64,000 nt of DNA from Stieleria neptunia (lineage in GTDB: Bacteria > Planctomycetota > Planctomycetia > Pirellulales > Pirellulaceae), in contig NZ_CP037423.1 of the NCBI RefSeq assembly GCF_007754155.1, forward strand, positions 3,534,001-3,598,000, written 5' to 3'. Below, piece by piece: positions 23,058 through 36,992 of the stretch; positions within the stretch are counted from its first letter, which is position 1, and the number at the start of each line of letters is the position of its first letter. The position numbers were made by a program, and so were the translations under genes. Under the pieces are notes generated by a model. That model saw nothing but the letters and a program-made list of their open reading frames with translations, searched no databases and was not told where the DNA came from.

Positions 23058-24529
23058 GGGGATTTGCGTTTCTTACCCTTGGCACGCGTTCCCTGCCCTT
23101 GTTTCGCTTTGATTCCCCGCTTGTGAAACGCTTCATTCGCTTCTTCACGAGACATCCCTTTGTACCTGGTTTGATGCAGGAGCGCATCCTGTTCGGTCTG
23201 GACTCCTGCATCTCCCTGCGACTTCATCCAATCGGCAAGCTCGCTCTTCAATCGCGCGACGACTTTGGCGTACTTGGGATCGTCGACGATGTTGTTCATT
23301 TCCAAGGGATCGGTTTCACAATCGAATAACTCGTATTCGGGTCGGTGCTGATATTTCCGGACGACCTCCGCCGCCTTGGCATCACCATCGCGACCGGCTT
23401 GGATCATGGATTGGAAATAGTCTGCCTTGGTGCAGGCGTTGGTAAACTTCGTCTCGTGATTCAGATTCCAGACCAGCCGATAGCGCCAACCCCGCACGGT
23501 GCGGATGGCATACGCATCGCTGCCATTGATGATGCCTCGCGTCGTCATGATGCCGTAGGCAAACGCTTTGTGGGTGTTGGCTTGGCTGGTCAGCACCGGG
23601 ACAAAGCTTTTTCCGTCTAAGACCTCAGCGGGCGTCCCGCCGGCGGCTTCGACAAAGGTCGGCGCCACGTCGACGTATTCCACCATCGCATCGGTGACGG
23701 TCCCCGGTTTCACTTGCCCCGGCCAACGCACGATCATTGCCGATTGCAGCCCATTTCCGTAGCACGTCCACTTGGCGAACGGGAACGAATTGCCCTGCTC
23801 GGAAACCACGACCACCAGCGTGTTGTCCGCCATCTTGTGCTTGTCGATCAATTCCAAGATCTGTCCCACCTGTCCGTCGTAGTACGTGATCTCGGCCAGA
23901 TAGCGGCTGAAGGTTTCCCGCATCACGGGCGTGTCCGCCAGATACGGCGGCAGGATCACTTCTTCCGGCGGATAACGCGAGGCGTCTCCCTTGTTCCAGG
24001 GCGAATGCGGTTCGTTGGAGCATGCGAACAGACAAAACGGGGTGGAGGATTCGCCGCACTGGGAAAGCAACTGATCGACCGCCTGCATGTCCGGGTTGTT
24101 GCCCTTGCCGCTGAATTCAAATGGGAAAACCTCTTGCGGACCGATGTGCTTTTTGCCCGACAACGCGACCCGATAACCCAACGGTTTCAAATACTGGACG
24201 ATGCTCTGGGTTCCATCCTCGGCAAACGTGTGATTCGGGTACGCACCCGATTTGACCGGATACAAGCCGGTATAGATGTTGTGCCGCGTCGGCGAGCACA
24301 TCGGTGCGGCTTGAAAGCAACGTGTGAACTTCATGCCCTGTTCGGCCAAGCGATCGATGTTCGGCGTATGAGCCTGGCCGCCGTAGCATCCGATATCACG
24401 AAACGTACAGTCGTCGGCGATGATGAAGACCAGATTGGGGCGGTCGGTGGCCGCATCGATCCGCGTCGTTTGCATCAACGCGATAGCCACAAACGCGGCG
24501 ATCGCGATCTGATTGGTGGGGAAGTGCAT
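23054..24529 (-). CDS. Secreted sulfatase (arylsulfatase family)
   Basis: The ATG at 24529 gives 491 residues, starting with a signal peptide (IAIAAFVAIALMQTTRIDA). Metal-binding DD in LVFIIADDCTFRDIGCYGG and the formylglycine motif CSPTRHNIYTG place it in the sulfatase family with Cys as the modified residue. Further features: SGKKHIGP (catalytic Lys/His) and FFACSNEPHSPW-like region. It probably removes sulfate from algal polysaccharides in the periplasm. The upstream frame (85 more codons) has no similarity. The stop codon is donated by the MITE end at 23057. Confidence 0.93.
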   Translation of the reverse strand: MHFPTNQIAIAAFVAIALMQTTRIDAATDRPNLVFIIADDCTFRDIGCYGGQAHTPNIDRLAEQGMKFTRCFQAAPMCSPTRHNIYTGLYPVKSGAYPNHTFAEDGTQSIVQYLKPLGYRVALSGKKHIGPQEVFPFEFSGKGNNPDMQAVDQLLSQCGESSTPFCLFACSNEPHSPWNKGDASRYPPEEVILPPYLADTPVMRETFSRYLAEITYYDGQVGQILELIDKHKMADNTLVVVVSEQGNSFPFAKWTCYGNGLQSAMIVRWPGQVKPGTVTDAMVEYVDVAPTFVEAAGGTPAEVLDGKSFVPVLTSQANTHKAFAYGIMTTRGIINGSDAYAIRTVRGWRYRLVWNLNHETKFTNACTKADYFQSMIQAGRDGDAKAAEVVRKYQHRPEYELFDCETDPLEMNNIVDDPKYAKVVARLKSELADWMKSQGDAGVQTEQDALLHQTRYKGMSREEANEAFHKRGIKAKQGQGTRAKGKKRKSP

Positions 24530-24695
24530 GATTCGGTCGCGATGGGGGAATTGCAATACGAAGGGCATCGAATGCCGGACACGCCCGATTGTAATCGATC
24601 GTTCTGGTCGTCGACGGTGCCTCGCAATACCTCTGCCGGCCAATACCCCCGCCGGCCAATGCCCCCGACCTTTGGCGCCGATCGGGCTGGTTCTT

Positions 24696-24889
24696 GTTAG
24701 CGGTTGGGCGCGAGCCCTCCGGTCTGTCACGCTGAAACCGGACGGCTCGCGGGCCGTCGATTGAGTCGGGATCCGCTGAGTCAATGGTGAGCCGCTGGCC
24801 GTAAGGCCTCGGGCAGCGTTGGAGGGCCCGGCCGCTGACGCGGCGCGCGGCTCACGAAAACGACAGCCCGCTCGCGCCGTTCCGCTAAC
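24696..24889. repeat. Composite palindrome (GTTAGCGG family), nested form
   Basis: Starts with the short form arm (GTTAGCGGTTGGGCGCGAG, then ACCGGACGGCTCGCGGG), followed by the nested palindrome (ATGGTGAGCCGCTGGCCG to GGCGCGCGGCTCAC) flanked by GTCGATTGAGTC and CGACAG, and ends with CTCGCGCCGTTCCGCTAAC. It shows clearly how the inner palindrome sits inside one arm of the outer one. It lies between the sulfatase start region and the cysteine hydrolase stop. Confidence 0.85.
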
Positions 24890-24939: not shown

Positions 24940-25722
24940 TCAAGCGTCCGTCGCGTCGACCGGTGTTTCCGATGGCAGGGCCGAGCGAATCGTCGTCAAG
25001 ACGTCCGACAACCGCGCCACGCGGGCGTAGCGATCACACAAGGTCGCCAAGGACGCCTCGTGTAACTCCGGCGTCACCGTCGCGCAGCAATCTTCGACGA
25101 CGGTCACCAGGTATCCCAGGTCGCAGGCGTCGCGGACCGTCGTTTCCACGCACTCGTTGGTGTACACGCCAACCACCATCAGCGACTCAATTCCCATGTT
25201 ATTCAAGACGTAATGCAGGTTGGTCGATGAAAACACTCCGCTGGCCGTCTTGTTGATCACGATCTCGTCCCGCGCTTCGTCCGGCGCCACCATCTCCAAA
25301 AAGTCCGCGTCACGGGAACCGGGAGCGGCCAGTAATCCCAGGCGCCGATGCCCCTTGCTGCGGTCGCGGCCGTCCCGCGTGAGCGCCTGAATTCGCGTGT
25401 GAATCACTTCCAATTGGCGGGCCCGGAACGCATCCTGCAACCGTCTCACATTGGGCAACACTAGTTTCTCGAGTCGGTCGAAATAATATTCCTGGGCCTC
25501 CATCGGGATACCGCTGTTCTCGGCATCGCGAAAGACCCCGTGCCCGCGCGCCGCGTCGAGATACTGGATATCGATGCACAGCAACGCCGTGTGCCCCTCG
25601 ACCAACAATTCCTGCCGCTCGGGATTGTCGACGATGGCCTCGTGATAGACATCCCGGAGCGGATCGACGTGGGAGGGATCGAGTAACGGGGAAGCGTACG
25701 GTTCGTTTTCGTCTCGGTTCAT
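24940..25722 (-). CDS. Cysteine hydrolase (isochorismatase/N-carbamoylsarcosine amidase superfamily)
   Basis: A 260-residue enzyme with the family triad: Asp in LLCIDIQYLD, Lys in VINKTASGVF, and the nucleophile Cys in GVYTNECVETTVRDA, followed by a cis-peptide-like region. Members include nicotinamidases and N-carbamoylsarcosine amidohydrolases, which release ammonia from amide or carbamoyl groups. It is 13 bases after the M20 hydrolase gene and is the last gene of the long minus-strand run from the betaine methyltransferases. The neighbours make a carbamoyl substrate attractive, but that is inference. No export signal is present. Confidence 0.87.
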   Translation of the reverse strand: MNRDENEPYASPLLDPSHVDPLRDVYHEAIVDNPERQELLVEGHTALLCIDIQYLDAARGHGVFRDAENSGIPMEAQEYYFDRLEKLVLPNVRRLQDAFRARQLEVIHTRIQALTRDGRDRSKGHRRLGLLAAPGSRDADFLEMVAPDEARDEIVINKTASGVFSSTNLHYVLNNMGIESLMVVGVYTNECVETTVRDACDLGYLVTVVEDCCATVTPELHEASLATLCDRYARVARLSDVLTTIRSALPSETPVDATDA

Positions 25723-25735
25723 GGGGCGTGTTTCG

Positions 25736-26986
25736 TCAGGTCGTTGAAATCGGGTTGGCCAGATCGATCAGGGAGTGCAGCATCAGGTTTGCCCCGGCTT
25801 CGATGTCCGTCCAGGCAGTCCATTCGGCCGGGGAGTGGCTTTGTCCATTTTTGCTGGGGACAAAAATCATGCCAACCGGAACCATACTACCCATGATTTG
25901 TGCGTCGTGGGCTGCCCCGCTATGCATTTGCAGATGTGTCAACTCCAACTGTTCGGCTTGGCGGAGCAAACGTTGGACGACCGCGGGGTCGGCGGCGACC
26001 GGCGGCAAGTAACTCTTTTGCTGAAATTCGAACATCAGGTTTCGGCGACGGGCAATGGCCGAGAGCGCCTTGCGAAACGCGTTGCCCAGATCGGCCAGAG
26101 TTTCCGGACTGGTGTCGCGCACATCCAGTGAAAACTCGACGATTCCCGGCACCGTGTTGGCCGCACCCGGCAAGATCTGAGCTTTGCCGATTGTCGCACG
26201 GCTTCGCGCACTGCCGTTTTCGTCCAAGATCCGGGGGATGGCCGATGCAAAGTCGGCCAAGCCCATGAAGGCGTCATGCCGCATCTCCATCGGAGTCGTA
26301 CCGGCGTGGTTCGCTTCGCCCTTCAGATTGACCGACCAGGTAAACAATCCGGTGATCTCGTCGACAATGCCCACCGATTTCTGACCGCGATCGAGCACCG
26401 GGCCTTGCTCGATGTGCAATTCCAAATAGCTCGCAATCGTCTCGGGGTCGCGAGCCGCATCGAGCGCACCGAGGGGATCGAATCCATGCCGCCGCAGCTC
26501 GTCGCCCAGTAGCACGCCGTCCAAATCAGAAAGCGTGGCCAACGCGTCTGGGTTCAATTGTCCGCACACCGCCTGAGAGCCGAACATCCCGCCGAATCGC
26601 CCTTCTTCGTCGCTGAACGCAATCAATTCGATCGTGCGCTCGGGGACGACGCCCTGTTCGCGAAGACAACGAAGGCATTCCAAGGCGACGATGACGCCCA
26701 GCGTCCCGTCCAGGGCTCCGGCGCAGGGCACCGTGTCAATGTGCGACCCGACCAAAATCCTCGGCCGGTCGGTCGACCCCGACAGCTCGGCCGAAATATT
26801 GACGGCGCCATCGGTCCGCGGCTCGAAACCGGCTTGCTCGATCCGGTCCTTCAGCCAGCGTTTCCCCTCCATGTCCGCATCGGTGAACGCCATCCGGTAG
26901 ATGCCGCGATCGTCACGGCAGCGCCCGATTTCGGCAAGTTCGTGGATGTCGGTTTTGATTCGTTCTAGGTTGACGCTCAAGTCCAT
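25736..26986 (-). CDS. M20-family N-carbamoyl-L-amino-acid hydrolase/allantoate amidohydrolase
   Basis: A 416-residue metallopeptidase-fold enzyme. Zinc-site motifs are present: GSHIDTVPCAGALDGTLGV (first His/Asp), FSDEEGRFGG (EE pair), and the bridging His regions LELHIEQGPVLD and MHSGAAHDAQIM. NHAGTTPMEMRHDA is the dimerisation-domain motif of the hydantoinase/carbamoylase group. Members hydrolyse N-carbamoyl amino acids, ureidoglycolate-type or allantoate substrates. It lies 13 bases after the AsnB-like gene and precedes a cysteine hydrolase by 13 bases. Together with the upstream carbamoyltransferase this suggests turnover of an N-carbamoyl compound. Confidence 0.9.
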   Translation of the reverse strand: MDLSVNLERIKTDIHELAEIGRCRDDRGIYRMAFTDADMEGKRWLKDRIEQAGFEPRTDGAVNISAELSGSTDRPRILVGSHIDTVPCAGALDGTLGVIVALECLRCLREQGVVPERTIELIAFSDEEGRFGGMFGSQAVCGQLNPDALATLSDLDGVLLGDELRRHGFDPLGALDAARDPETIASYLELHIEQGPVLDRGQKSVGIVDEITGLFTWSVNLKGEANHAGTTPMEMRHDAFMGLADFASAIPRILDENGSARSRATIGKAQILPGAANTVPGIVEFSLDVRDTSPETLADLGNAFRKALSAIARRRNLMFEFQQKSYLPPVAADPAVVQRLLRQAEQLELTHLQMHSGAAHDAQIMGSMVPVGMIFVPSKNGQSHSPAEWTAWTDIEAGANLMLHSLIDLANPISTT

Positions 26987-26999
26987 GGAGTTCTCATCG

Positions 27000-28922
27000 T
27001 TAGTCGACCGTGGGAAGCGGCATGCCTTCGACGTACTGTCCCTGCAACATGTGCAGTTGCAACGCGTGATTCATCAAAATGTCATTTCGACGAGCAATCG
27101 TGCCATCGGTTTCACGCCATGCCTGAGAAACAAACTGCTCCACCCGTTCGTGGTTCAAAATCCCCAACTCGTTCATCCGCGTCGGCGTCAACCAGTGATT
27201 GATCATCTCTTGCACCGCGTTTCGTTTGACCGGATCCGTGTGCGCCGGCGGCGCCATGAACGCAAATTTCTTGCGTTCGTACAGTTCCCTGGGCAACACG
27301 TTGACCATCGCTTCACGCAGCACCCATTTCTCAATGCCGTCACGGATGCGGATGTCTGGGGGGATGGTCACCGCGTACTCGGCCAGATGGTGGTCCAGGA
27401 ACGCCGGACGGGCTTCCATGCTGTTGGCCATGTCCATTCGGTCACCGCCCCAGGTCAGGATCTGACCTTCCAGCATGGTTTTGCTCCAGGTGTATTGCGA
27501 GATGTCCAAACGATGCCGGCCACGCACCTGGTCGGGGTCGATCGCCGCGGCGACTTCGGCGATCGGGTCGTAGGTCTCCAGCAGATCGATCAACTCGTCC
27601 GACAGCAATGCACGTGCCGCACGCAGCGTCAGCATCCAAGGTTGAATCCACGAAGGCGTGAAACCACACAGGTCTTGCCAGGCCGGGTGCAACTGGTCCT
27701 CTTCGGCCAAGATGGCGCCGGCAAAAATCCCCCCTTCCCCTTTTTCGCGTCCCAGCCAGTCGCGTTTGAAGAATGGATAGCCGCCGAACAGTTCATCGGA
27801 GCCTTCGCCGGTGATGACCGCTTTGTAGTTGCAGGCCCTGACGCGTCGGCTCATGTGCCACTTGGCCACCGCCAGCGTGTTGTAAAACGTCCGCTCGGCG
27901 TGCCATGTCGCCCGCTCGAACGCCGGCCCGTAGAGTTCCTTTTCGGTCAAACGTAACAGTTCCTGTTCGGCGCCGGTACGATCGGCCATCAATTTGGCGA
28001 TGTTCGATTCGTCGTACTCATCGCTGTCAAAGGCGATGGTGAACGCCTTGACCGGCGATTGCTGCAGGGTCGTCGCCAGCCCCAGGATCGAACAGCTGTC
28101 GATGCCGCCGGACAGGTAACACCCCACCGGCACGTCGGCCTCCAATCGGGTTGCGACCGCGTCGATCAACCGGTCCTGAACGCCCTGGACATACTCCTGC
28201 GGATCCGCGCCCGATTCGTGGGACGTGGGGAACTCCAGGTCCCACCAACGCTTCGATTCGGTCACCAGTCGATCGCCCACGCGTTGCACGATCAGCATGT
28301 GGCCGGGCTGGACCGCTTGCACGCCTTCGAACGCCGTCGTCCCCGGAACCATGACCTGCATCATCTGGTGAATCGCAGCCTTGGGACACAGTCGCGGAAC
28401 GACGCTGGGGTGTTTCAGGATCGACTTGACCTCCGACCCCCAAACGATCCCGTCGTCCTTGACGGCGTAATACAGCGGTTTGATCCCGAACCGATCTCGG
28501 ATCAGAATCAAACGTTTTTCGCGGTGGTCGTACAAGACGATCGCAAATTCTCCACGCAACCGCTCCACGAATGACAGTCCGTGCCGGAGGTACAGCGGCA
28601 ACGTGATCGCGCTGTCGCTCTTACCGTCACTCGGCAGCGACTGGCATGCCAGCCGAGTTCGTTCGCGCTTGTAGCCATACAATTCACCGTTGACCGTGAC
28701 CGCGTAGTCACCGTCGCGGGTCTCGATCGGTTGGTGCCCGTGATCCAAGCCGATGATCGACAGACGGGTGTGCCCGAGGGCCAAACCTTGGTCGAGAAAA
28801 AACTTGCTGCCCCGTTCGTCCGGACCGCGGTGGTCCAAAACGTCCAACATCTGGTCCAGAGTGAAACGCAGCTCGCGCTCGTTCGTCCGCGCAGGATTCC
28901 AAAATCCAGTGATTCCGCACAT
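27000..28922 (-). CDS. asnB: Asparagine synthetase (glutamine-hydrolysing) type amidotransferase
   Basis: A 640-residue protein. The mature N-terminal Cys (MCGITGFW, Cys2 nucleophile) begins the glutaminase domain with LDHRGPDERG and LGHTRLSIIG. The synthetase domain has the PP-loop YLSGGIDSCSI, and GEGSDELFGGYPFF. The canonical reaction amidates aspartate with glutamine and ATP. Relatives of this family amidate other substrates, for instance in synthesis of the osmolyte N-acetylglutaminylglutamine amide. It lies 35 bases after the carbamoyltransferase gene within an osmolyte-type operon, so a non-standard substrate is possible; the sequence does not settle this. Confidence 0.9.
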   Translation of the reverse strand: MCGITGFWNPARTNERELRFTLDQMLDVLDHRGPDERGSKFFLDQGLALGHTRLSIIGLDHGHQPIETRDGDYAVTVNGELYGYKRERTRLACQSLPSDGKSDSAITLPLYLRHGLSFVERLRGEFAIVLYDHREKRLILIRDRFGIKPLYYAVKDDGIVWGSEVKSILKHPSVVPRLCPKAAIHQMMQVMVPGTTAFEGVQAVQPGHMLIVQRVGDRLVTESKRWWDLEFPTSHESGADPQEYVQGVQDRLIDAVATRLEADVPVGCYLSGGIDSCSILGLATTLQQSPVKAFTIAFDSDEYDESNIAKLMADRTGAEQELLRLTEKELYGPAFERATWHAERTFYNTLAVAKWHMSRRVRACNYKAVITGEGSDELFGGYPFFKRDWLGREKGEGGIFAGAILAEEDQLHPAWQDLCGFTPSWIQPWMLTLRAARALLSDELIDLLETYDPIAEVAAAIDPDQVRGRHRLDISQYTWSKTMLEGQILTWGGDRMDMANSMEARPAFLDHHLAEYAVTIPPDIRIRDGIEKWVLREAMVNVLPRELYERKKFAFMAPPAHTDPVKRNAVQEMINHWLTPTRMNELGILNHERVEQFVSQAWRETDGTIARRNDILMNHALQLHMLQGQYVEGMPLPTVD

Positions 28923-28957
28923 GGGTGCCTTCCGTATTAATCTCTATCGTGGTGTCG

Positions 28958-30037
28958 TTAGCAGAGGTCCGAAATTCGATCCAGCCGATTCAGGACGGAG
29001 GCCAACACGGCTTGTCGGACGAACACGGCGCCCGCGGCTTGGGCGAAATAAAGGTTGTGTTCGGTTTCGTCCAAGTCTTCGGACAGTTCCTCGTTGCGCG
29101 CCAGCGGGTGCATGATCACCGCACCCGGTTTTAAATTGCACGACGCGTCCAACCCGTACCGGCTGTCCAGATTTCGGTAGCTGTCACCGAGAAACGCGAT
29201 CGAGTTGACGTAGACGACATCCAGCGTGGGCAAAACGTCTTGGACGTCGTTGGTGATTTCGATCGGAATCGGCGACTCTTCGATCGGTTCGGTCAAATCC
29301 AACCCGACCGGGTCGGCCATCTCGGAAACCAACGTGATTTTGGAGACCGCATTGACGAACATCAGCGACAGACGCAGAAAACTCTTGACCGCACGCATCG
29401 AGCCCGGCGTGCCGACGATCCCCAGATGAATCTTCTTGTCGTTCGGGCACGATTGGTCACTCAATTCCGGTCGCCATTTCAGCAACGTGTACCAGTCCAA
29501 CAACGCCTGTGTCGGATGGTGACCGCTGCCGTTGCCGGCATTGATCAACGGGCGTTCGAGATTCTTTTGGATCTCTTCGACACTTTCGGTTTCGGGATGC
29601 CGCATGATCACGACATCTCCGTAGGTATTGAACATCTCCCCGATGTCGGCCAACGATTCGCCCTTGGCGATGCCGGTGACTTGCCCGTCGGGGACCGACA
29701 GCACCTTGCCGTCCAGCCGGAGCACCGCGCTTTCGAACGACAATCGCGTCCGCGTGCTCGCTTCGAAGAACGCCGTGATCGCGATTTTTCCGTCCAGCGG
29801 CTTTTTCATCTCGACATTCCGCGTTTCCAACAACGCGGCCAGCTGAGCGATCGCCACTACCGTCTCGCGGTCGAATTGCCGCGGATTGACGATCGACGTG
29901 CCGGCGAGCTTGTGGAGCGTCTCCCAGTCGACTTGCATGTCGCTGTGGGTGAGCAGATCAACCGGATCCAATTTGCGGCCCTTCGAATTGGTCGCGAACT
30001 CCGTCAACGCACGGCGCATTTGTGTCGTGTTCATCAT
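28958..30037 (-). CDS. Aspartate/ornithine carbamoyltransferase family protein (PyrB-like, altered substrate loop)
   Basis: The ATG at 30037 gives 359 residues. Carbamoyl-phosphate site motifs are intact: FFEASTRTRLSFES, GIAKGESLADIG, the Arg in MRHPETES, GHHPTQALLDW and HPLAR (usually HPLPR). In contrast, the loop that in aspartate carbamoyltransferases reads RVQKERF after the LYM strand is replaced by VNSIAFLGDSY. The Arg and Gln that hold the aspartate carboxylates are thus not seen. It is probably a carbamoyltransferase for another amine acceptor, or pyrimidine synthesis in unusual form. It lies 10 bases after the 40-residue membrane protein and 35 before the AsnB-like gene. A database would likely call it pyrB. 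Confidence 0.85.
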   Translation of the reverse strand: MMNTTQMRRALTEFATNSKGRKLDPVDLLTHSDMQVDWETLHKLAGTSIVNPRQFDRETVVAIAQLAALLETRNVEMKKPLDGKIAITAFFEASTRTRLSFESAVLRLDGKVLSVPDGQVTGIAKGESLADIGEMFNTYGDVVIMRHPETESVEEIQKNLERPLINAGNGSGHHPTQALLDWYTLLKWRPELSDQSCPNDKKIHLGIVGTPGSMRAVKSFLRLSLMFVNAVSKITLVSEMADPVGLDLTEPIEESPIPIEITNDVQDVLPTLDVVYVNSIAFLGDSYRNLDSRYGLDASCNLKPGAVIMHPLARNEELSEDLDETEHNLYFAQAAGAVFVRQAVLASVLNRLDRISDLC

Positions 30038-30047
30038 CAGTACGGGT

Positions 30048-30170
30048 CTACCAGATTCTTTTTTCTTTAAAGTCGAGGATCCAAAACACAATGAGTGCCG
30101 CCGCGCCCACGCCACACAGCGTGAGCCCACCCACCACGATCAACTCCAGAAACCAGAGGGGGAACATCAT
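30048..30170 (-). CDS. Forty-residue single-span membrane protein, symporter partner
   Basis: Too short for usual gene cut-offs. ATG ATG at 30170/30167 starts a frame of 40 codons ending in TAG at 30048. One strongly hydrophobic helix (about residues 7-31: LELIVVGGLTLCG then VGAAALIVFWIL) is followed by a charged tail (DFKEKRIW). The start codon overlaps the stop of the symporter gene as ATGA, and GGAGGTGAA in the symporter end can serve as its ribosome site. The next gene starts 10 bases after it. Small accessory membrane proteins next to sodium:solute symporters are known in several bacteria; that this is one is inference from position and shape. Confidence 0.7.
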   Translation of the reverse strand: MMFPLWFLELIVVGGLTLCGVGAAALIVFWILDFKEKRIW

Positions 30171-31756
30171 CGCGTTTCACCTCCGCTGGAAATATCTCCA
30201 ACCATACCAATTCGTCCACTGGGGTCGATGGGGCCGTCTTCCGGTCGGGCCGCAGGCGGCGGACCGGGCAAATGAGACAACAATCGGAAATCAAAGTCAT
30301 CGGGGTACAAATACATCCCTATGAAGAACACCACCCCCGAAGTCGCCGCTCCCACCAACGAGGCGACGAACCAACCGATCATATAGTACGCCACCAGCCC
30401 GATTGACGTGCCGACCACCATCGCCATACAGGCCGCGATCGGACTGGAACGGCGAAAATACAGACCACCGATGATCGGCCAAATGCAACTGCCGACCATC
30501 GGTCCGGCAAAAAACAAAACCGTCGCAAGGGTGCCGATATTGGGATAAGCGACGCACCACGTGACAACCCCCAACCCAATGATCGCGAACAACGACCAAC
30601 GCCGTTTGACCGGGTCGGTGGCGGTCGTGCCACTGATCCGCTTCGCCAGCGGTTCGGCGATGTCGTTGACCACCAAGTCGCTCGTCGCGGCCAACAAGCT
30701 GTCGATGCTCGATGCCAGTGAGCAAAAGACGACCACGAACACCAGCAGCGCGCCCCCGGTCCCCAGCAGCGTCGCGGCAACCAGCGGGCCCACCGTGTCG
30801 GGTTGACTGACCCCGATCCCCAGCGCCGGCGCGGCCAGGCCCAAAAAACCGGCGACGATCGGAACGGGCAGCCACAACAATCCGCCCAACAAATACGCCT
30901 TGGGGCCGACCCCCTCACGCATCGCAAACGCGCGGCTCCACCACACATTGCTGTGAAAAATTTCTCCAAATCCGAATAGCATATTATTGAACAACGCCAT
31001 CAATGCCGCCGGAAACAGGATCGACAACAACATCGGTCGATCCTCTTGTAGCTGGTGATGGACGTCTGCGATGTCGACATGCAAAAGCACCGCAATGGCG
31101 ACGACGACCAGCCCGATCAGGATAATAATGCTTTGCACAAAGTCGGTGCCGATGACCGCGTACATGCCGCCGAACAGCGTGTACAGCACACAAACCGCCA
31201 GCACGACCGTCATCCCGACTTCATACGGAATGCCCGAGAGCGCGTTGAGCAATTTGCCGCCCGCCATCGCCATCGAAATCAACCACGTCATCGCGTAAAA
31301 CAGCGAGATGATCAGAAACGGGATCGATCCCAGACGCCCGTAGCGACGCCGGACAAACTCCACCGCCGTGTAGCCGTGCGGCATCAAGCGGCGAATCCTG
31401 CCGCTCAGCGGGGCGAATGCGAACAACCCGAAACTGGCCGTTGAATACGCCAACGCACCCCAAATGCCGAGCTGCAGCGCGAACTGCGGCGCCAACATGG
31501 TCGTGTTGGATGTCACCCAAGTCGCCACCGCCGTCGCGGTGCCGAGGGCCAATCCGACGTTCCGGCCCGCCACGGCAAATCCGTCATACGACGTCGCCCG
31601 GCGGCCCCACCAGATGCCCAGCCCGATCCATGCCACTCCGAACAGCACCAGCATCCCGTAACCGGCCTCGGGGCTGAGGATGCGGCCGGCATCGACCGAT
31701 TGAGAAAACAACAAAATGGCGAAGATTCCTTCGGCCCCACCGTCTGCGGTCATCAT
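30167..31756 (-). CDS. Sodium:solute symporter (SSS family)
   Basis: The first ATG after the upstream stop codon (31756) gives 529 residues; the longer frame reads through the neighbouring gene and is rejected. About 13 hydrophobic segments are visible. Family motifs include GRRATSYDGFAVAGRNVGLALGT at the N-terminus, ATWVTSNTTMLAP, and the helix with GGMYAVIGTDFVQS, plus a conserved SSIDSLLAATSDLVVNDI that holds the second sodium site. The substrate is not predictable; acetate, proline, sugars and others occur. The start overlaps the upstream gene stop by four bases and the 40-residue protein overlaps the end, so three genes are coupled. Confidence 0.9.
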   Translation of the reverse strand: MMTADGGAEGIFAILLFSQSVDAGRILSPEAGYGMLVLFGVAWIGLGIWWGRRATSYDGFAVAGRNVGLALGTATAVATWVTSNTTMLAPQFALQLGIWGALAYSTASFGLFAFAPLSGRIRRLMPHGYTAVEFVRRRYGRLGSIPFLIISLFYAMTWLISMAMAGGKLLNALSGIPYEVGMTVVLAVCVLYTLFGGMYAVIGTDFVQSIIILIGLVVVAIAVLLHVDIADVHHQLQEDRPMLLSILFPAALMALFNNMLFGFGEIFHSNVWWSRAFAMREGVGPKAYLLGGLLWLPVPIVAGFLGLAAPALGIGVSQPDTVGPLVAATLLGTGGALLVFVVVFCSLASSIDSLLAATSDLVVNDIAEPLAKRISGTTATDPVKRRWSLFAIIGLGVVTWCVAYPNIGTLATVLFFAGPMVGSCIWPIIGGLYFRRSSPIAACMAMVVGTSIGLVAYYMIGWFVASLVGAATSGVVFFIGMYLYPDDFDFRLLSHLPGPPPAARPEDGPIDPSGRIGMVGDISSGGETR

Positions 31757-32343
31757 GATTCCCCACCCGACTTGACCTCGGTTTGCAACATCGACGCGCG
31801 ATCGTCGTCGCCGGCTGCGATCTGTTTTTCGATCCAACGGCCTCGCAGGATCACAAAGGCGATTCCGCCAACCACGATCGCTCCGATCGCAAACAGGGTC
31901 AGCGAGGGAGCCAGCCGCCAATGTTCGACCGTTGCCACGGCCGGTGCGGACGTCGCCAGGATTTCTCCGTCGGCGCCGATCGCCTCGACGTAAAACTGGT
32001 AGACCCCGTCGCTCAACCCGGACTGAAACGATTGGGTCGCCACGCCCTGATACGCGATCTGATCGGCGCGGTCGCGGACGCGGTACAACGCCGCCCCGTC
32101 CACCGCCGTCCACTCCAGCGTGAAATAGCCTTCACGCGAGACGTCCAACTCGGGGCCGACAAACGCCAACGCGGGCCGCGGCTGCGGCTCCGACTCGGCC
32201 GCCATCGCAACCGAGTCCCAAACCGCCGTCGAAGATCCGATCAGCACCACCGCCGCGGCGACCACCCGGCGCAGCCGCGGGCAGGCGAGTGCCCGTGCGC
32301 CGCGGCGCTTCCGGCGAGTGTTGAAGTGAGCTAGCATCCACAT
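31753..32343 (-). CDS. Exported, membrane-anchored protein with fibronectin-III-like domain
   Basis: A 196-residue protein. The Arg-rich N-terminus precedes a hydrophobic segment (VVAAAVVLIGSS) and a likely signal cleavage after VAMA. A beta-rich domain follows (PELDVSREGYFTLEWTA...YRVRDRADQIAYQG...GLSDGVYQFYVEAIGADGEI, split by gaps here), typical of fibronectin III repeats. One transmembrane helix (LTLFAIGAIVVGGIAFVI) and a charged C-terminus end it. Its stop overlaps the start of the symporter, so it is probably a periplasmic or extracytoplasmic partner of that transporter. I know no named family for it. Confidence 0.7.
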   Translation of the reverse strand: MWMLAHFNTRRKRRGARALACPRLRRVVAAAVVLIGSSTAVWDSVAMAAESEPQPRPALAFVGPELDVSREGYFTLEWTAVDGAALYRVRDRADQIAYQGVATQSFQSGLSDGVYQFYVEAIGADGEILATSAPAVATVEHWRLAPSLTLFAIGAIVVGGIAFVILRGRWIEKQIAAGDDDRASMLQTEVKSGGES

Positions 32344-32360
32344 GGAATCGAACTTCTCGT

Positions 32361-32585
32361 CTAGCGGCGTCGCACGCGTTTAAGCCAATAGTCGACACCC
32401 ATCTCGTTGATGGGGTCGCCGTCCAGGCAAACGGTGATTTTCTCCGTCCCGTCGGCGACGTTTTCCAGCTGCTTCGCGGCCGCTTCGCCGCTCTTGGCGT
32501 CCACCGGAAACGACTCCAGCACGGTGCCGTCGCCGTCGATCTGTTTGACTTCGTAAGTTTTGTGTAGTGAATCCGACCATTCCAT
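32361..32585 (-). CDS. Small soluble protein, function unknown
   Basis: About 74 residues starting MEWSDSLHK. Two in-frame ATGs exist (32591 and 32585). A GGGAG ribosome site lies only two bases before the first but about eight bases before the second, so 32585 is preferred. It is acidic, with no membrane segment and no signal; it has a beta-alpha-beta look (KTYEVKQID, TVLESFPVDA, AAKQLENVA, ITVCLDGDPI). It sits between the BCCT transporter (12 bases before) and the fibronectin-like gene (17 bases after) in the same direction. No function is recognised. Confidence 0.7.
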   Translation of the reverse strand: MEWSDSLHKTYEVKQIDGDGTVLESFPVDAKSGEAAAKQLENVADGTEKITVCLDGDPINEMGVDYWLKRVRRR

Positions 32586-32597
32586 TGTCATGTCTCC

Positions 32598-34310
32598 CTA
32601 GGAGTAAAGTGGTGATGAAGAGATTTGAGAATCTCTGTGAAGCGAAGTCACCAACCCGTAACAGGCCAGCAACAAGACTAACGTCAAGGGAAGTGCGGCC
32701 GCAATCGATGCGGCCTGCAATGCGTCCAGGCCTCCGCCATAGAGCAGTGCAGCGGCGACCAGCCCTTCACTGATCGCCCAGAAAAGTCGCGTTCCGACGG
32801 GTGGATTTCGAGACCCGCCCGACGCGATGATATCGATCACCATCGACGCGGAATCCGACGAGGTGACGAAGAAGAGAACGATGCAAAGCGTGGCGATGCC
32901 GATCGCGATCGTTTGAATGACAACCGAGGGAAACAACCCTTCCAGCAGAACAAACAAGACCGTCGGCAGCGTATCGACCGTGGACCGCCCGTCAGGCGTG
33001 ACCACCGCCGCTTGATAGTACTCGACCGCTGTCAAGGGTTGCTGCTCACGCTTGAACTCGCCCGAATCCAGCCGAACCAACTCGCCCGCCGGACCGGCTT
33101 CACCGACCCAGTACTTCGGCAACTCGTCGGCAGGGTCATAGTTGTCGTCGCTCGACAACCGTTCCATATGGTCGGTGTATTGCCGCAGCGTGGTCGTGCC
33201 AAAGGCGGTCAGCCAGGCGATGCCCACTGCCGTGGGGACCAGCAACACGCCGATCACAAACTCCTTGATCGTCCGCCCGCGGGAAATACGGGCGATGAAC
33301 ATCCCGACAAACGGCGACCATGAAATCCACCACGCCCAGTAGAACACGGTCCAGCCGTTGACCCACGTTTGTGACTGCTCGTTGAACGCCCCGGTTCGCA
33401 ATGAATTAAACGGCAGCGTTTGCAAATAGGCGCCGGTGTTTTCGATCGCGGCACCCAGGTACGTGAACACGCCGACGCCCAACACCACCAACGTCATCAA
33501 CGTCGCGGCGAGCACCAAATTCAACTCGCTCAAACGCCGAATCCCGCCGTGCAATCCGACGACCACCGACGCGGTTGCCATCGCGGTGATCGCGGCGATC
33601 AGTGTCATCTGCACTTCGATGCCCGAACCGATCCCGAACAAATGCGACAGCCCGGCGTTGACCTGCTGGGCTCCGATCCCCAACGACGTGGCCACACCGG
33701 TCAACGTCGAAACGATCGCCAGGATGTCGACCAGATCGCCCAGCCGCCCCCAAACTCGATCGCCGAACACCGGGTACAGCAACGACCGGAAGCTCAGCGG
33801 CAACCCCCGGCGAAAACCACTGTAGGCGAGCGCCAGGCCGACGACGCAGTAGAGCGCCCAGGGATGAAGCCCCCAGTGAAAGATCGTGACCGCCATCGAC
33901 AATCGCGACTGGTCCAGCCCGTCGGCAAAACCCGGCGGCGTGCTTTCGTAATGGATGATCGGTTCCGCCACACCAAAAAACAACAACCCGATGCCCATGC
34001 CGGCGCTGAACAACATGGCGAACCACGACCCCCGGCTGAACTCCGGTGACTCGTCATCGCGACCGAGTCGGACCTGCCCGTACTTGCCAACCGCCAGCCA
34101 AATCGCAAAGCCGAAAAAGAACGCCATCGAGGCGACGTAAAGCCAGCCGAAATGGACCGCGATCGTCTTGCGAACGGCAACAAACGCGTCCTGTAACTCG
34201 TTGGCGGGCCACACGAAACACAGCAAGGCGACCGCCAACACGATCGCAGCGCTGGAAAGGAATACGACCGGATGCATCTCAAAATGCGGACCGATCACCA
34301 CGCGCGGCAT
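32598..34310 (-). CDS. BCCT-family betaine/carnitine/choline transporter
   Basis: The ATG at 34310 gives 570 residues; a TTG at 34361 would add 17. Twelve hydrophobic helices can be traced. Signature stretches: GMGIGLLFFGVAEP, the Trp-rich segment WAWWISWSPFVGMFIARISRGR, and VVSTSS-like VTSSDSASMV near the end. These transporters take up glycine betaine or related trimethylammonium solutes, driven by sodium or proton gradients, and often sense osmotic stress through their C-terminal tail; the tail here is short. It follows the two glycine methyltransferase genes by about 200 bases, consistent with synthesis and uptake of betaine. Confidence 0.92.
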   Translation of the reverse strand: MPRVVIGPHFEMHPVVFLSSAAIVLAVALLCFVWPANELQDAFVAVRKTIAVHFGWLYVASMAFFFGFAIWLAVGKYGQVRLGRDDESPEFSRGSWFAMLFSAGMGIGLLFFGVAEPIIHYESTPPGFADGLDQSRLSMAVTIFHWGLHPWALYCVVGLALAYSGFRRGLPLSFRSLLYPVFGDRVWGRLGDLVDILAIVSTLTGVATSLGIGAQQVNAGLSHLFGIGSGIEVQMTLIAAITAMATASVVVGLHGGIRRLSELNLVLAATLMTLVVLGVGVFTYLGAAIENTGAYLQTLPFNSLRTGAFNEQSQTWVNGWTVFYWAWWISWSPFVGMFIARISRGRTIKEFVIGVLLVPTAVGIAWLTAFGTTTLRQYTDHMERLSSDDNYDPADELPKYWVGEAGPAGELVRLDSGEFKREQQPLTAVEYYQAAVVTPDGRSTVDTLPTVLFVLLEGLFPSVVIQTIAIGIATLCIVLFFVTSSDSASMVIDIIASGGSRNPPVGTRLFWAISEGLVAAALLYGGGLDALQAASIAAALPLTLVLLLACYGLVTSLHRDSQISSSPLYS

Positions 34311-34517
34311 CTGCGGAGCGCGGGGTGGTGCGGGGCGTTGGGAAGTGGTCGTTTGGGTCAAGAATCAATCGGTAAAGGAAATGGAACGTGCCTGAATACG
34401 TGCCTGAAATGGAGGTGTTGCGGTGGTCCGTCGCCGCAGTGGTCTGCCAAGCTTAACATCGCGCGGAAAAGAGGTGTCGGGTCGAGCCCCCCTTCTTTTC
34501 CGCCGATTGCTGATTCC

Positions 34518-35354
34518 CTACGGCTTACCGAATAGAAACACGCCCCAGCTCAAGTGCCCGTTTCGGCCTCCATCCACCCAGTGCTGGAGCCCCGTTTTCA
34601 TGCGTTCCAAGTAATCGTCGGAGATTTTGCCATTCAAGTCCGACTGGCGGTCTTCGGTCACCTGCAGCACACGCGCGTAGTGATTGACCAGTTGATCGGT
34701 CAGGTCCTCAAACCCCAAATCGTTCCAACCGAGATCTTCTGCGACGCCTTGATAGAATTTCGGCGAACCGAGGTCGGCCAAATGGATCCGCGCCAGAATC
34801 GGATCCAGCACACCGTCGGGGCAATCGTTCGACTGCATCGGATCGGTAAAGACGAATCGCCCGCCGGGCTTGAGGACCCGATCCACCTCGCCCAAGACAC
34901 GCGGCCGATTGCCGGCATGCAAAATGGCGTCCTGGGACCAGGCGGCGTCAAACAGGCCGCCCTCAAACGGCAGCTCTTCAAAACTGCCGTCGACGACATC
35001 GATCCGGTCTGCCACGCCGGCCTGCTCGTTCAGTCGACGATTGCGCGCGTTCTCGGTCTCCGACAGGTTGACGCACGTCACGCGACAGCCAAAGCGTTCG
35101 ACCATCCGCCGCGCCGCGCCGCCGTATCCCGACCCGACGTCGATCACCGTGGAGTGCTGGTTTAAATCGCCGATCCGATCGAGCAAATGATCGACCGTGC
35201 GCCGGCTGGCATCCTTGATCGGCTCCGCGTCGGATTCGTACAACCCGATGTGAATGTCCTCGCCACCCCAGATCTCCGAGTAAAAATGGTCCGCATCGGA
35301 ACTGTTGTAGTACTCCCGGGCGACCTGCGTGGCTGTCTCTGAACTCATGCTCAT
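34518..35354 (-). CDS. Sarcosine/dimethylglycine N-methyltransferase
   Basis: A 278-residue class I SAM methyltransferase. The SAM motif is VIDVGSGYGGAARRM, followed by an acidic residue pair and FDAAWSQDAILHA, and a conserved VFTDPMQSNDCPDG; the early part AREYYNSSDADHFYSEIWGGEDIHIGLY is characteristic of the dimethylglycine/sarcosine methylating enzymes (quoted in pieces under family limits: AREYYNSSDAD and WGGEDIHIGLY). It would carry out the last two methylations from sarcosine to glycine betaine. Its ATG overlaps the stop codon of the glycine/sarcosine methyltransferase (ATGA), so the pair is translationally coupled. The upstream partner does the first steps. Confidence 0.9.
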   Translation of the reverse strand: MSMSSETATQVAREYYNSSDADHFYSEIWGGEDIHIGLYESDAEPIKDASRRTVDHLLDRIGDLNQHSTVIDVGSGYGGAARRMVERFGCRVTCVNLSETENARNRRLNEQAGVADRIDVVDGSFEELPFEGGLFDAAWSQDAILHAGNRPRVLGEVDRVLKPGGRFVFTDPMQSNDCPDGVLDPILARIHLADLGSPKFYQGVAEDLGWNDLGFEDLTDQLVNHYARVLQVTEDRQSDLNGKISDDYLERMKTGLQHWVDGGRNGHLSWGVFLFGKP

Positions 35355-36178
35355 CGTGGCGCCCCCTCGTACTTCTTCGACGCAACGTGGACGAAAAAGT
35401 CCGGCTCGCGCTCGTGATAGGTTTCCTGGAAATCTCCGTAGGTGCTCACCGACTGGAAACCGACCTCTTGCATCAGATGACGCGTGTAATCCTTCCGCAG
35501 CGGAAACATATTCAAGTGGTACACCGATCCGTCGTCGAACGAGTACTGGAATCGCGCCAGCCCCTCGTCGACGTGCTCCGGTTCCGCCGAGACTTTTTCG
35601 CCACAGTAGTAATATTTATGCTTTGAACTGAAACCGTGATCGAGCATTTCGTCATAGTTTCGCTGGTCCAGAATCAAAACGCCGTCGTGGACCAACGCCG
35701 AATAGAATTCCGCCAACGCCTTCCGCCGGTCCCGCTCGTCGAACAAGTGCGTGAACGAGTTGCCCAGGCAAATCACGGCGTCAAAACGACCGTAAACGTC
35801 CTGGTTCAGCCAACGCCAATCCGCCTGGACGGTCCGCAAGACACGTCCCCGCTGGCGGGCGTTTTCAAAGGCCCTTGCGAGCATGTAGGGGCTGCCGTCC
35901 ACGCTGACCACATCAAAACCGGCCTCAAGCAGCCGAACCGAATGAAAACCGGTCCCGGTGGCCACGTCCAGCACCCGCTTGACGCCGTGGGCCTTGAGCT
36001 GCTCGATGAAAAAATCCCCCTCCGATTCCCAGCGCTGCTGCCAGTCAATCAGCTCATCCCACTTCTCCACGAATCCCCGCACATATTCATCGGTGTAGGT
36101 ATCCGTTGACCTCACCTCCGTGGGGTCGGTGCCGTAGTCTTGGGATTTGTATTCGAGCAGGAATTCGTCGGGCGCCAT
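35351..36178 (-). CDS. Glycine/sarcosine N-methyltransferase
   Basis: The ATG at 36178 gives 275 residues (a TTG upstream would add 10). SAM motif: VLDVATGTGFHSVRL, followed by VVSVDGSPYML and DAVICLGNSFTHLF. YTDEYVRGFVEKWDELIDW is typical of the GSMT family. It methylates glycine to sarcosine and then to dimethylglycine using SAM. This gene pair is the hallmark of the de novo betaine route known from halophilic and marine bacteria. It is divergent from a MarR regulator 262 bases away. Confidence 0.9.
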   Translation of the reverse strand: MAPDEFLLEYKSQDYGTDPTEVRSTDTYTDEYVRGFVEKWDELIDWQQRWESEGDFFIEQLKAHGVKRVLDVATGTGFHSVRLLEAGFDVVSVDGSPYMLARAFENARQRGRVLRTVQADWRWLNQDVYGRFDAVICLGNSFTHLFDERDRRKALAEFYSALVHDGVLILDQRNYDEMLDHGFSSKHKYYYCGEKVSAEPEHVDEGLARFQYSFDDGSVYHLNMFPLRKDYTRHLMQEVGFQSVSTYGDFQETYHEREPDFFVHVASKKYEGAPR

Positions 36179-36440
36179 GTGTTGTTGCCTTAGGAAAGAA
36201 ATCGTCAACTTGCGGTCAAGCCGCTCTGGACGAGCGATCCAGGTTATCAGAAAGTGGTTTGTGTTGAAAGCAGTTTTGCCTTCGGCGGGAGTCTATGGAC
36301 GGCTCCCCGGTGACGTCAACCTCGCGTTTTTCCGCCGAACTCGGCGTGGGAACCCATCTGAAATTTCCCCGGAACGCCGATTGCGGTAAATTGAGTGATG
36401 GTGGTGGAAGTCGCGTTTTGTTACATCAACTTTGGGATCA
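36179..36440. promoter_or_regulatory. Divergent control region between betaine operon and MarR gene
   Basis: No gene is seen. An 8-base palindrome TGACGTCA lies at about 36311-36318. I can find no firm -35/-10 boxes. Such a region would be expected to hold the operators for both genes, but no repeated operator can be defined by eye. Confidence 0.4.
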
Positions 36441-36992
36441 ATGCATTTGTTGACGCATGAGGACCAGATCGTTGCGGCGATCAGGCAGATCATTCGGGCG
36501 GTGGACCTGCATTCTCGAAAATTGGTCAACGGCCACGGGTTCACGGGCCCGCAGCTGGCCGTGTTGCAAGAAGCCCAACGCCTCGGCAGTGCATCGCCTA
36601 AAGCGATCGCCCGCGCGGTGCATCTCAGCCAGGCGACGGTGTCGGGCATCTTGCAGCGACTGGAGCGGCGGGAACTGATCCTCCGCAAACCGAGTGCGAA
36701 CGACAAACGCTCCGTGATGATCGAGATTTCGCCGCAGGGCGAACAGGTCCTCCAGGCTTCGCCCTCACTGCTTCAAGACCGCTTTCGCGACGCGCTTTCG
36801 TCGTTGGAAGAGTGGGAGCGGTTGCAAATCCTTTCCACCCTGCAGCGCGTCGCTGGCCTGATGGACGCCGAACATCTCGAAGCGTCGCCCCACCTGACCC
36901 CCGGCGAAATCCCCGGTGACGAAGAGGAATTGCCCAGTCCCGTCCCGCCCACTGCCCCGCCCTCGTCGATCAACCTGAACGAGCCTTGCTGA
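36441..36992 (+). CDS. MarR-family transcriptional regulator
   Basis: A 183-residue regulator from the ATG at 36441 (a TTG three codons upstream is possible). The winged helix spans about residues 35-115: GFTGPQLAVLQEAQRLGSAS, then AIARAVHLSQATVSGILQRLERRELI, and the wing RKPSANDKRSVMIEIS. The C-terminal 35 residues are Pro/Glu rich and probably disordered. It is divergent from the betaine biosynthesis genes, the same arrangement seen for the osmotic regulators EctR and CosR of the MarR family, which repress compatible-solute genes. Control of this operon by this protein is inferred, not shown. Confidence 0.88.
   Translation: MHLLTHEDQIVAAIRQIIRAVDLHSRKLVNGHGFTGPQLAVLQEAQRLGSASPKAIARAVHLSQATVSGILQRLERRELILRKPSANDKRSVMIEISPQGEQVLQASPSLLQDRFRDALSSLEEWERLQILSTLQRVAGLMDAEHLEASPHLTPGEIPGDEEELPSPVPPTAPPSSINLNEPC

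What the first reader, a model, noticed from the sequence alone, without database searches (positions are those of the whole stretch)
24940..36178. Compatible-solute operon with an unexplained carbamoyl/amide branch
Eleven minus-strand genes with mostly 0-40 base gaps or overlaps run from glycine methyltransferases (betaine synthesis) through a BCCT carrier, a coupled SSS carrier with two small partners, to a carbamoyltransferase, an AsnB-type amidotransferase, an N-carbamoyl-amino-acid hydrolase-type M20 enzyme and a cysteine hydrolase of the N-carbamoylsarcosine amidase superfamily. Two enzymes that could build and two that could break a carbamoylated, amidated amino acid are encoded directly behind a betaine module. 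I propose a second, unknown compatible solute made from an amino acid, carbamoyl phosphate and glutamine. Gene order is seen; the shared purpose is inferred.
Basis: partly seen in the sequence, partly recalled or inferred. Interest (0 to 1): 0.78.

Follow-up and report, generated by a model that had tools for sequence, protein, structure and literature searches.

The report
Operon for carbamoyl-glutamine-amide salt protectant
Behind its glycine-betaine genes a marine-type bacterium carries a gene set that most likely makes, imports and recycles a salt protectant known from a purple bacterium but, as far as I could find, without known genes; the same core gene pair recurs in several bacterial phyla, including genomes of that purple bacterium's genus.

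Summary
In detail: eleven co-directional genes (24940-36178, minus strand) run GSMT, SDMT, BCCT, small ORF, Fn3-like/TM protein, SSS symporter, 40-aa TM ORF, carbamoyltransferase (CTase), AsnB-type amidotransferase, M20 carbamoylase, cysteine hydrolase.

AsnB directly follows the CTase in 77 of 80 named loci (two misses are contig ends), 20 of 20 fetched gammaproteobacterial loci and 10 of 10 loci of a genus inferred to be Ectothiorhodospira. Titles name six phyla or candidate phyla besides Gammaproteobacteria. The betaine module is a lineage-specific neighbour; the carbamoyl cassette is the core.

The CTase is an ATCase homologue that keeps the carbamoyl-phosphate site and the alpha-carboxylate arginine but lost both side-chain-carboxylate residues in 39 of 39 aligned sequences.

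[quoted passage not shown] All 10 searched genomes of the inferred genus carry CTase-AsnB-CysH-M20, separate from NAGGN, pyrB and argF genes, but without the SSS carrier beside them. I found no published CGA genes in the open library searched. Best reading: CGA synthesis, recycling and (here) uptake. The substrate is inferred, not shown.

The parts
36432..36992 (+). MarR-family regulator, divergent; 223 bases from the longest GSMT ORF, 253 from its ATG at 36178
   Evidence: PF01047; same family (profile from L094) in 20 of 80 named loci and 6 of 13 long gamma loci at E<1e-30
35351..36178 (-). Glycine/sarcosine N-methyltransferase (GSMT), betaine module
   Evidence: NF051855 over cut-off; ATG at 36178; the ORF is open to 36208
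34518..35354 (-). Sarcosine/dimethylglycine N-methyltransferase (SDMT), betaine module
   Evidence: NF041675, 379.9 bits, below its cut-off of 550
32598..34361 (-). BCCT betaine/choline-type carrier
   Evidence: PF02028
32361..32591 (-). Small ORF of about 75 aa, no family
   Evidence: tblastn matches in L033, L034, L037, L038 and L115 (that query was translated one base out of register, so its identities are not used)
31753..32343 (-). Fn3-like/TM protein with a signal-like N-terminus (my reading of the sequence), presumed partner of the SSS carrier
   Evidence: No Pfam/NCBIfam family at a meaningful score; profile match in 73 of 80 named loci, the 7 misses having at most 1.9 kb of contig upstream
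30167..31756 (-). SSS-family sodium:solute symporter
   Evidence: PF00474; directly upstream of CTase in 79 of 80 named loci
30048..30170 (-). 40-aa single-TM ORF between SSS and CTase
   Evidence: a similar ORF end is seen in the same place in L005; not surveyed elsewhere
28958..30037 (-). Carbamoyltransferase (CTase), ATCase-like, predicted amino-acid (Gln) N-carbamoyltransferase
   Evidence: PF02729/PF00185; clade apart from seven pyrB/argF-type paralogues; site residues; model m1ea632042b02, pLDDT 87.7
27000..28922 (-). AsnB-type glutamine-dependent amidotransferase, predicted alpha-carboxylate amidation
   Evidence: PF00733, GATase_7; clade distinct from NAGGN synthase
25736..26986 (-). 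M20 N-carbamoyl-L-amino-acid hydrolase, predicted decarbamoylation
   Evidence: TIGR01879 and NF006771 over cut-offs; H82, D84, D93, E127, E128, H191, H384 in 58 of 58
24940..25722 (-). Cysteine hydrolase (isochorismatase/N-carbamoylsarcosine amidase superfamily), predicted 1-amide hydrolysis
   Evidence: PF00857; D51, K158, C191 in 53 of 53

Best explanation
[quoted passage not shown] Proposed route (inferred): the CTase moves the carbamoyl group of carbamoyl phosphate to the alpha-amino group of L-glutamine; the AsnB-type enzyme uses ATP and glutamine to amidate the alpha-carboxylate, giving a neutral, nitrogen-rich solute with both charges masked. For turnover, the cysteine hydrolase removes the 1-amide and the M20 carbamoylase then removes the N-carbamoyl group, returning glutamine. 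In this genome the SSS carrier with its Fn3-like/TM and 40-aa TM partners would take the solute back up. A divergent MarR regulator may control expression. Shown here: gene content, conserved linkage, conserved catalytic residues, loss of the aspartate side-chain clamp, presence in 10 of 10 searched genomes of a genus inferred to be Ectothiorhodospira. Inferred: substrate, product, direction of transport, regulation.
For: Linkage: AsnB within 600 bases downstream of CTase on the same strand in 77 of 80 named loci (misses: two contig ends and one with AsnB 3 kb away); SSS upstream in 79 of 80. Gammaproteobacteria: 21 of 369 genomes have the CTase; 20 of the 21 loci were fetched and 20 of 20 have AsnB adjacent; 13 long neighbourhoods were fetched and 13 of 13 have M20 and CysH upstream in the same orientation. 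CTase and AsnB distances correlate (Mantel r 0.72, 0 of 2000 permutations as high, 39 chosen loci). CTase site: of 39 chosen cassette sequences, 39 keep ATCase positions S52, T53, R54, T55, K84, R105, H134, Q137, R167 and P266; 0 keep R229 or Q231. AsnB keeps Cys2 in 82 of 84. Producer genus: a pufM-positive gamma hit (G677) has a CTase whose best named relatives are Ectothiorhodospira sp. (96%), E. lacustris (83%) and E. magna (82%); 10 of 10 held genomes of its genus carry the CTase with AsnB downstream and CysH-M20 upstream in 10 of 10. PMC3857566 calls CGA found in one organism only, E. marismortui (passages). CTase homologues are also named for Thiorhodospira sibirica and E. magna (their neighbourhoods were not read under those names), which lack annotated betaine and ectoine synthesis genes in PMC7824335 (passages); that paper names CGA, beside sucrose and NAGGN, as a candidate. 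Osmolyte context: GSMT genes nearby in three separate lineages (Pirellulaceae such as the window and L033, Phycisphaerales L042, gamma L163). MarR regulators EctR1 and CosR control ectoine genes (PMC7876524 passages).
Against: No biochemistry. In the inferred Ectothiorhodospira genomes no SSS or Fn3-like/TM gene was seen beside the cassette (SSS in 0 of 10 short loci; neither in the long loci L159 and L160), so the importer is not a constant part there. Rhodopirellula baltica DSM 10527 extracts showed glutamate, sucrose, trehalose and MGG by NMR, and the word carbamoyl does not occur in that paper (PMC3694870 passages); a record named R. baltica has the cassette (L059), but DSM 10527 itself was not tested. 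Raman spectra of E. marismortui extracts showed no signal attributed to CGA, called a minor solute not in the spectral library (PMC3857566). Synthesis and breakdown genes share an operon, odd for a stable osmolyte. Some carriers belong to genera not known as marine (Chitinophaga, Sphingobacterium; habitat recalled). MarR is found in only 13 of the 38 named loci with at least 6 kb on both sides. The 80 named loci are the best 80 of 121 and were selected by two CTase peptide patterns. Sequence cannot tell Gln from Asn or other neutral amino acids. Prevalence is uneven: 24 of 149 in the family, 2 of 199 in the phylum. The known producer's genome was not searched under its name.
Confidence: 0.62

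Rival explanations
1. Same chemistry, different acceptor: the cassette makes an N-carbamoyl amide of another neutral amino acid (for example asparagine or alanine), an unknown solute, at least in the planctomycetes; CGA is made only by the gamma branch.
For: The CTase tree splits into a gamma branch and the rest (forks 87/98 and 85/94, both unstarred). The loop reads N-S-I-A-F-L-G-D in most non-gamma sequences and N-[SA]-I-A-W-V-G in most gamma sequences. The window-type loci have the SSS importer, the Ectothiorhodospira-type loci do not.
Against: N278 (in the R229 loop), R215 and K125 (window numbering) and the adjacent AsnB are shared by both branches; one chemistry is simpler.
Confidence: 0.2
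2. Nitrogen storage or scavenging: the product is a nitrogen reserve, or the SSS imports ureido compounds for M20/CysH to degrade, and osmotic protection is secondary.
For: Two hydrolases and often an importer sit with the synthetic genes; carriers include genera not known as marine.
Against: The synthetic pair is the near-constant part and the hydrolases vary: 9 of 38 named loci with at least 6 kb on both sides lack both. Betaine genes are neighbours in three lineages.
Confidence: 0.12
3. AsnB closes a ring (beta-lactam-synthetase-like) and makes a hydantoin instead of an open amide.
For: M20 enzymes of this family are named hydantoinase/carbamoylase (TIGR01879).
Against: The Cys2 glutaminase nucleophile is kept in 82 of 84, so ammonia from glutamine is expected; I saw no hydantoinase-like cluster among the 45 recurrent neighbour clusters that one search printed (not annotated one by one).
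Confidence: 0.04
4. The CTase is only a spare aspartate (or ornithine) carbamoyltransferase and its neighbours are coincidental.
For: Databases name it aspartate carbamoyltransferase or aspartate/ornithine carbamoyltransferase family protein.
Against: The genome has separate pyrB- and argF-like genes; the 10 genomes of the inferred Ectothiorhodospira genus have three OTCace genes each (a fourth match in G731 is one gene in two pieces); the CTase falls below the cut-offs of all 17 NCBIfam carbamoyltransferase models listed; Asp clamp lost; linkage is conserved across phyla.
Confidence: 0.02

Closest known systems
[quoted passage not shown] not read, known through passages of PMC3857566 and PMC1224877)
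   Same: Exactly the product class predicted: carbamoylated amine, amidated alpha-carboxylate. The cassette is in 10 of 10 held genomes of a genus inferred to be Ectothiorhodospira.
   Different: PMC3857566 says one organism only (PMC7824335 speaks loosely of other purple sulfur bacteria); I found no published genes. Here the gene pair occurs across phyla.
NAGGN pathway (N-acetylglutaminylglutamine amide; amidotransferase TIGR03104)
   Same: An AsnB-type enzyme makes a neutral glutamine-derived amide osmolyte (role recalled).
   Different: The cassette AsnB scores far below the TIGR03104 cut-off and forms its own clade; a carbamoyltransferase is its partner. The 10 genomes of the inferred Ectothiorhodospira genus have both.
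Aspartate transcarbamoylase (PyrB)
   Same: Fold and carbamoyl-phosphate site.
   Different: R229 and Q231 lost in 39 of 39 aligned sequences; own clade; linked to AsnB.
M20 N-carbamoyl-L-amino acid hydrolases and N-carbamoylsarcosine amidase-like cysteine hydrolases
   Same: Family membership and conserved residues.
   Different: Here linked to synthetic genes.
MarR-controlled ectoine operons (EctR1, CosR; PMC7876524 passages)
   Same: MarR regulator next to solute-synthesis genes.
   Different: The window MarR reaches no NCBIfam cut-off and was not compared directly with EctR1 or CosR; regulation is untested.

Membership tests
CGA biosynthesis (no family is described; features deduced from the structure) | N-carbamoyl donor enzyme and carboxylate amidotransferase encoded together | tested here: met
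   CTase-AsnB adjacency 77/80, 20/20, 10/10
CGA biosynthesis (no family is described; features deduced from the structure) | Present in the known producer | tested here: inconclusive
CGA biosynthesis (no family is described; features deduced from the structure) | Enzymes act on glutamine and N-carbamoylglutamine | not testable with these tools
   Needs assays
Aspartate carbamoyltransferase | Curated score (TIGR00670 236.95; NF002032 263) | tested here: not met
   180.2 and 175.9 bits
Aspartate carbamoyltransferase | R229/Q231 that bind the Asp side-chain carboxylate (role recalled) | tested here: not met
   0 of 39; S80 is also not kept in that alignment
Aspartate carbamoyltransferase | Carbamoyl-phosphate site (role recalled) | tested here: met
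   S52, T53, R54, T55, R105, H134, Q137 in 39/39
NAGGN amidotransferase TIGR03104 | Curated cut-off 570.1 | tested here: not met
   261.7 bits for the window protein (209.6 in the genome search); 255.1-264 for the cassette copies of the 10 genus genomes
Glutamine-dependent asparagine synthase family TIGR01536/PF00733 | Curated cut-off; Cys2 nucleophile; SGGIDS loop | tested here: met
   390.6 over 267.1; Cys2 82/84, loop 84/84
Hydantoinase/carbamoylase M20 amidases TIGR01879 | Curated cut-off 204 | tested here: met
   354.5 bits
Isochorismatase-type cysteine hydrolase PF00857 | Cut-off and D-K-C triad | tested here: met
   122.7 over 27; D51, K158, C191 53/53; which residues form the triad is recalled

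The most novel reading that the evidence does not exclude
A complete cross-phylum system for a ureido-amide compatible solute: a previously unrecognised class of neutral-amino-acid carbamoyltransferase of the ATCase fold, an alpha-amidating AsnB-type partner, a two-step recycling route and, in many lineages, a dedicated three-part SSS importer (SSS + Fn3-like/TM + 40-aa TM). A solute described from one phototroph would then be made in at least six phyla, including marine planctomycetes and soda-lake Verrucomicrobiota, and would be a largely overlooked pool of dissolved organic nitrogen.
Probability: 0.5. Interest if true: 0.85.

Novelty: new variant of a known kind. Interest (0 to 1): 0.76.

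Why it matters
CGA has been an orphan: a structure with one well-documented producer and, as far as I could find, no genes. A specific, testable gene set now exists. If right, it gives a new enzyme activity (glutamine N-carbamoyltransferase), offers an explanation for how Ectothiorhodospira magna and Thiorhodospira sibirica might cope with salt without annotated betaine or ectoine synthesis, corrects 'aspartate carbamoyltransferase' annotations, and predicts ureido-amide solutes in marine and soda-lake bacteria.

Tried and rejected
Rejected: spare pyrB/argF; the NAGGN pathway itself; betaine genes as an obligatory partner (in L034 only fragments of GSMT, SDMT and BCCT align beside an intact cassette). 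The CTase has no match at 1e-50 in 72,556 plasmid records. Internal promoters or terminators could not be argued either way. A quick look at five upstream stretches showed no shared MarR operator palindrome. A literature search for ATCase residue roles found nothing, so the roles of R167, R229, Q231 and K84 are recalled. Halorhodospira and other purple bacteria were not tested as negative controls; E. marismortui was not searched under its name. The 39 CTase and AsnB sequences are 27 of the 80 named loci, 11 of the 13 long gamma loci and the window (38 loci picked by me for spread). In the AsnB tree 36 of the 39 cassette rows were used: L042, L085 and L098 fell to my filter for an MCG start. 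That tree counts 6 label changes for the cassette because five rows that I labelled 'other' (L194, L195, L205, L206, L209) are cassette copies fetched again; counted as cassette, the clade is 41 rows at 99/99. Long branches meet in it, so the deeper order is unsure. In one search the Fn3 and MarR columns for the short gamma, genus and 24 unnamed loci read 0 because those loci were not searched for them; I do not use these. In one search the 'small' query was out of register, so its percentages are not used.

Full report
What is there. The window lies at 3,534,001-3,598,000 of an 11-Mb single-contig genome; the closest named relatives of its CTase are from Stieleria (95%; 97%, L033). Minus-strand genes from 36178 to 24940 are GSMT, SDMT, BCCT, a small ORF, an Fn3-like/TM protein, an SSS symporter, a 40-aa TM ORF, a carbamoyltransferase (CTase), an AsnB-type amidotransferase, an M20 carbamoylase and a cysteine hydrolase. 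Gaps are -4 to 35 bases except 156 between SDMT and BCCT. A MarR regulator lies divergently upstream at 36432-36992.

The genome has two other OTCace-family genes: one that I read as pyrB (L001, with an LRIQFER motif) and one that I read as argF (L002, beside an argB-like gene). The CTase is a third enzyme.

Does the set travel together? A scan of named genome contigs with a CTase alignment matched 224 stretches, of which 121 encode a relative; the best 80 were kept. In these 80 loci AsnB follows on the same strand within 600 bases in 77; the three others are two contig ends (79 and 5 bases left) and one locus with AsnB 3 kb away. SSS precedes in 79; the other begins at a contig end. The Fn3-like/TM protein is found in 73; the seven misses have at most 1.9 kb of contig upstream. 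Record titles name Planctomycetota, Myxococcota, Verrucomicrobiota, Bacteroidota, candidate division GN15 and Calditrichaeota. Several are sediment MAGs whose codes (CSSed, T3Sed) I recall as soda lakes.

M20 and CysH are both present in 26 of 38 named loci with at least 6 kb on both sides; nine have neither and three have M20 only (the M20 in L032 is only 33% identical). In the 39 named loci that have both, M20 is on the CTase strand in 27 and on the other in 12. In gammaproteobacteria 21 of 369 genomes have the CTase at E 1e-80 or better (384-411 bits, against 185 for E. coli PyrB). Twenty of the 21 loci were fetched; all 20 have AsnB next to it, 16 have SSS and the other four have CysH-M20 immediately upstream. 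Thirteen long neighbourhoods were then fetched: 13 have M20 and CysH upstream on the same strand, and the Fn3-like/TM protein is present exactly where SSS is (9 with both, 4 with neither). CTase and AsnB pairwise distances correlate (r 0.72, 0 of 2000 permutations, 39 chosen loci).

Within the window's family 24 of 149 genomes have the CTase; across the phylum 2 of 199. The 24 planctomycete neighbourhoods fetched next (23 of the family hits plus G025) all have SSS-CTase-AsnB, and 18 of the 21 with at least 6 kb on both sides have M20 and CysH. Some of these genomes are the same as named loci, so the sets overlap.

The betaine module is a variable neighbour: GSMT in 6 of 80 named, 1 of 13 long gamma and 2 of 24 unnamed loci. 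But it appears in three separate lineages (Pirellulaceae, Phycisphaerales L042, gamma L163), which points to osmotic physiology. The MarR family is seen in 20 of 80 named loci (13 of the 38 with at least 6 kb on both sides) and 6 of 13 long gamma loci: a frequent, not a constant, partner.

What the CTase is. It lies below all curated carbamoyltransferase cut-offs listed. Thirty-nine chosen cassette CTases form one side of a branch (98/98) apart from seven paralogues. Against E. coli PyrB, 39 of 39 keep S52, T53, R54, T55, K84, R105, H134, Q137, R167 and P266, but R229 is S (30) or A (9), Q231 is A (37) or T (2), and S80 is not kept in that alignment. From recalled ATCase biochemistry, R167 binds the alpha-carboxylate and R229/Q231 the side-chain carboxylate of Asp. 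The simplest reading is a carbamoyltransferase for a free amino acid with a neutral side chain. The fold model (pLDDT 87.7; residues 281-283 of the R229-equivalent loop are below 50) matches ATCases best.

What the others are. The AsnB-like protein is over the cut-off of the glutamine-hydrolysing asparagine synthase model TIGR01536, keeps Cys2 in 82 of 84, and lies in a clade apart from NAGGN synthase. M20 and CysH keep their catalytic residues. Together they imply: carbamoylate, amidate; later de-amidate, de-carbamoylate.

The match to a known orphan. [quoted passage not shown] marismortui, in PMC3857566 (passages). PMC7824335 speaks of it, with sucrose and NAGGN, as found in other purple sulfur bacteria. 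I did not read the 1991 paper. To test the prediction I looked for reaction-centre genes among the 21 gamma hits; G461 and G677 have them. The CTase of G677 has as best named relatives Ectothiorhodospira sp. (96%), E. lacustris (83%) and E. magna (82%); Thiorhodospira sibirica, Thioalkalivibrio, Thiohalobacter and Nitrosococcus oceani also appear in the list of 120. All 10 held genomes of the genus of G677 carry the CTase (in G731 it is split over two reading frames), and all 10 have AsnB downstream and CysH-M20 upstream. None shows SSS beside it, and the two long loci of that genus (L159, L160) have neither SSS nor the Fn3-like protein. All 10 also carry a separate NAGGN synthase over the curated cut-off and three OTCace genes each, the extra match in G731 being its split CTase. 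G677 and G728 have GSMT, a second GSMT-like gene and no betA, the pattern that PMC7824335 tabulates for E. mobilis DSM 237 and E. marismortui DSM 4180. This identification is indirect.

The same paper shows E. magna without betaine or ectoine synthesis genes and T. sibirica with no annotated osmotic-stress genes, and offers sucrose, CGA or NAGGN as candidates. CTase homologues are named for both species; their gene neighbourhoods were not read under those names.

Against. R. baltica DSM 10527 extracts showed glutamate, sucrose, trehalose and MGG by NMR, and the paper does not contain the word carbamoyl (PMC3694870 passages). CGA is called a minor solute in E. marismortui and gave no Raman signal there. 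Carriers include Chitinophaga and Sphingobacterium. Synthesis and breakdown genes share an operon. The importer is missing from the inferred Ectothiorhodospira loci. None of this excludes the reading, but the substrate is not shown.

Is it in print? Searches for the compound, for carbamoyltransferase with asparagine synthase and compatible solute, and for Ectothiorhodospira with CGA/NAGGN terms listed no paper that I could recognise as describing its genes; I read passages of some of the listed papers. The library holds only openly licensed PMC papers, so this is not proof of novelty.

Verdict. Observation confirmed; interpretation right in outline, with the solute most likely CGA and the betaine link lineage-specific. 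Confidence 0.62 for CGA itself, about 0.8 for an N-carbamoyl amino-acid amide.

Noticed in passing
L034 6527-7374: In strain TBK1r only short fragments of GSMT, SDMT and BCCT align beside an intact carbamoyl cassette: the betaine module seems to be lost independently.
   Followed up: partly
L085 3501-5432 and L098 11080-13026: Both Sphingobacterium cassette AsnB proteins have Ser instead of the Cys2 glutaminase nucleophile, so they may use free ammonia.
   Followed up: no
window 31753-32343 and 30048-30170: An Fn3-like/TM protein and a 40-aa TM ORF flank the SSS carrier and match no curated family; the first recurs across phyla wherever SSS does (contig ends apart) and looks like an undescribed SSS partner.
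   Followed up: partly
window 23054-24784: A sulfatase follows the operon on the same strand; close copies sit next to the cassette in L033, L034, L037, L038 and L115 (79-88% identity), only weak sulfatase matches elsewhere.
   Followed up: no
L181 (G731:C1:1194650-1195584): The CTase of one genome of the inferred Ectothiorhodospira genus is split over two reading frames; sequencing error or real decay was not decided.
   Followed up: no
L059 11068-12983: AsnB of the record named Rhodopirellula baltica BR-MGV aligns as two overlapping pieces, as if frameshifted.
   Followed up: no
L071 10990-14001: Only locus of the 80 where about 3 kb, holding a weak M20-like match, separate CTase and AsnB.
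   Followed up: no
L182-L191: All 10 genomes of the inferred Ectothiorhodospira genus carry an NAGGN synthase well over the curated cut-off, so two glutamine-derived amide osmolytes may coexist there.
   Followed up: yes
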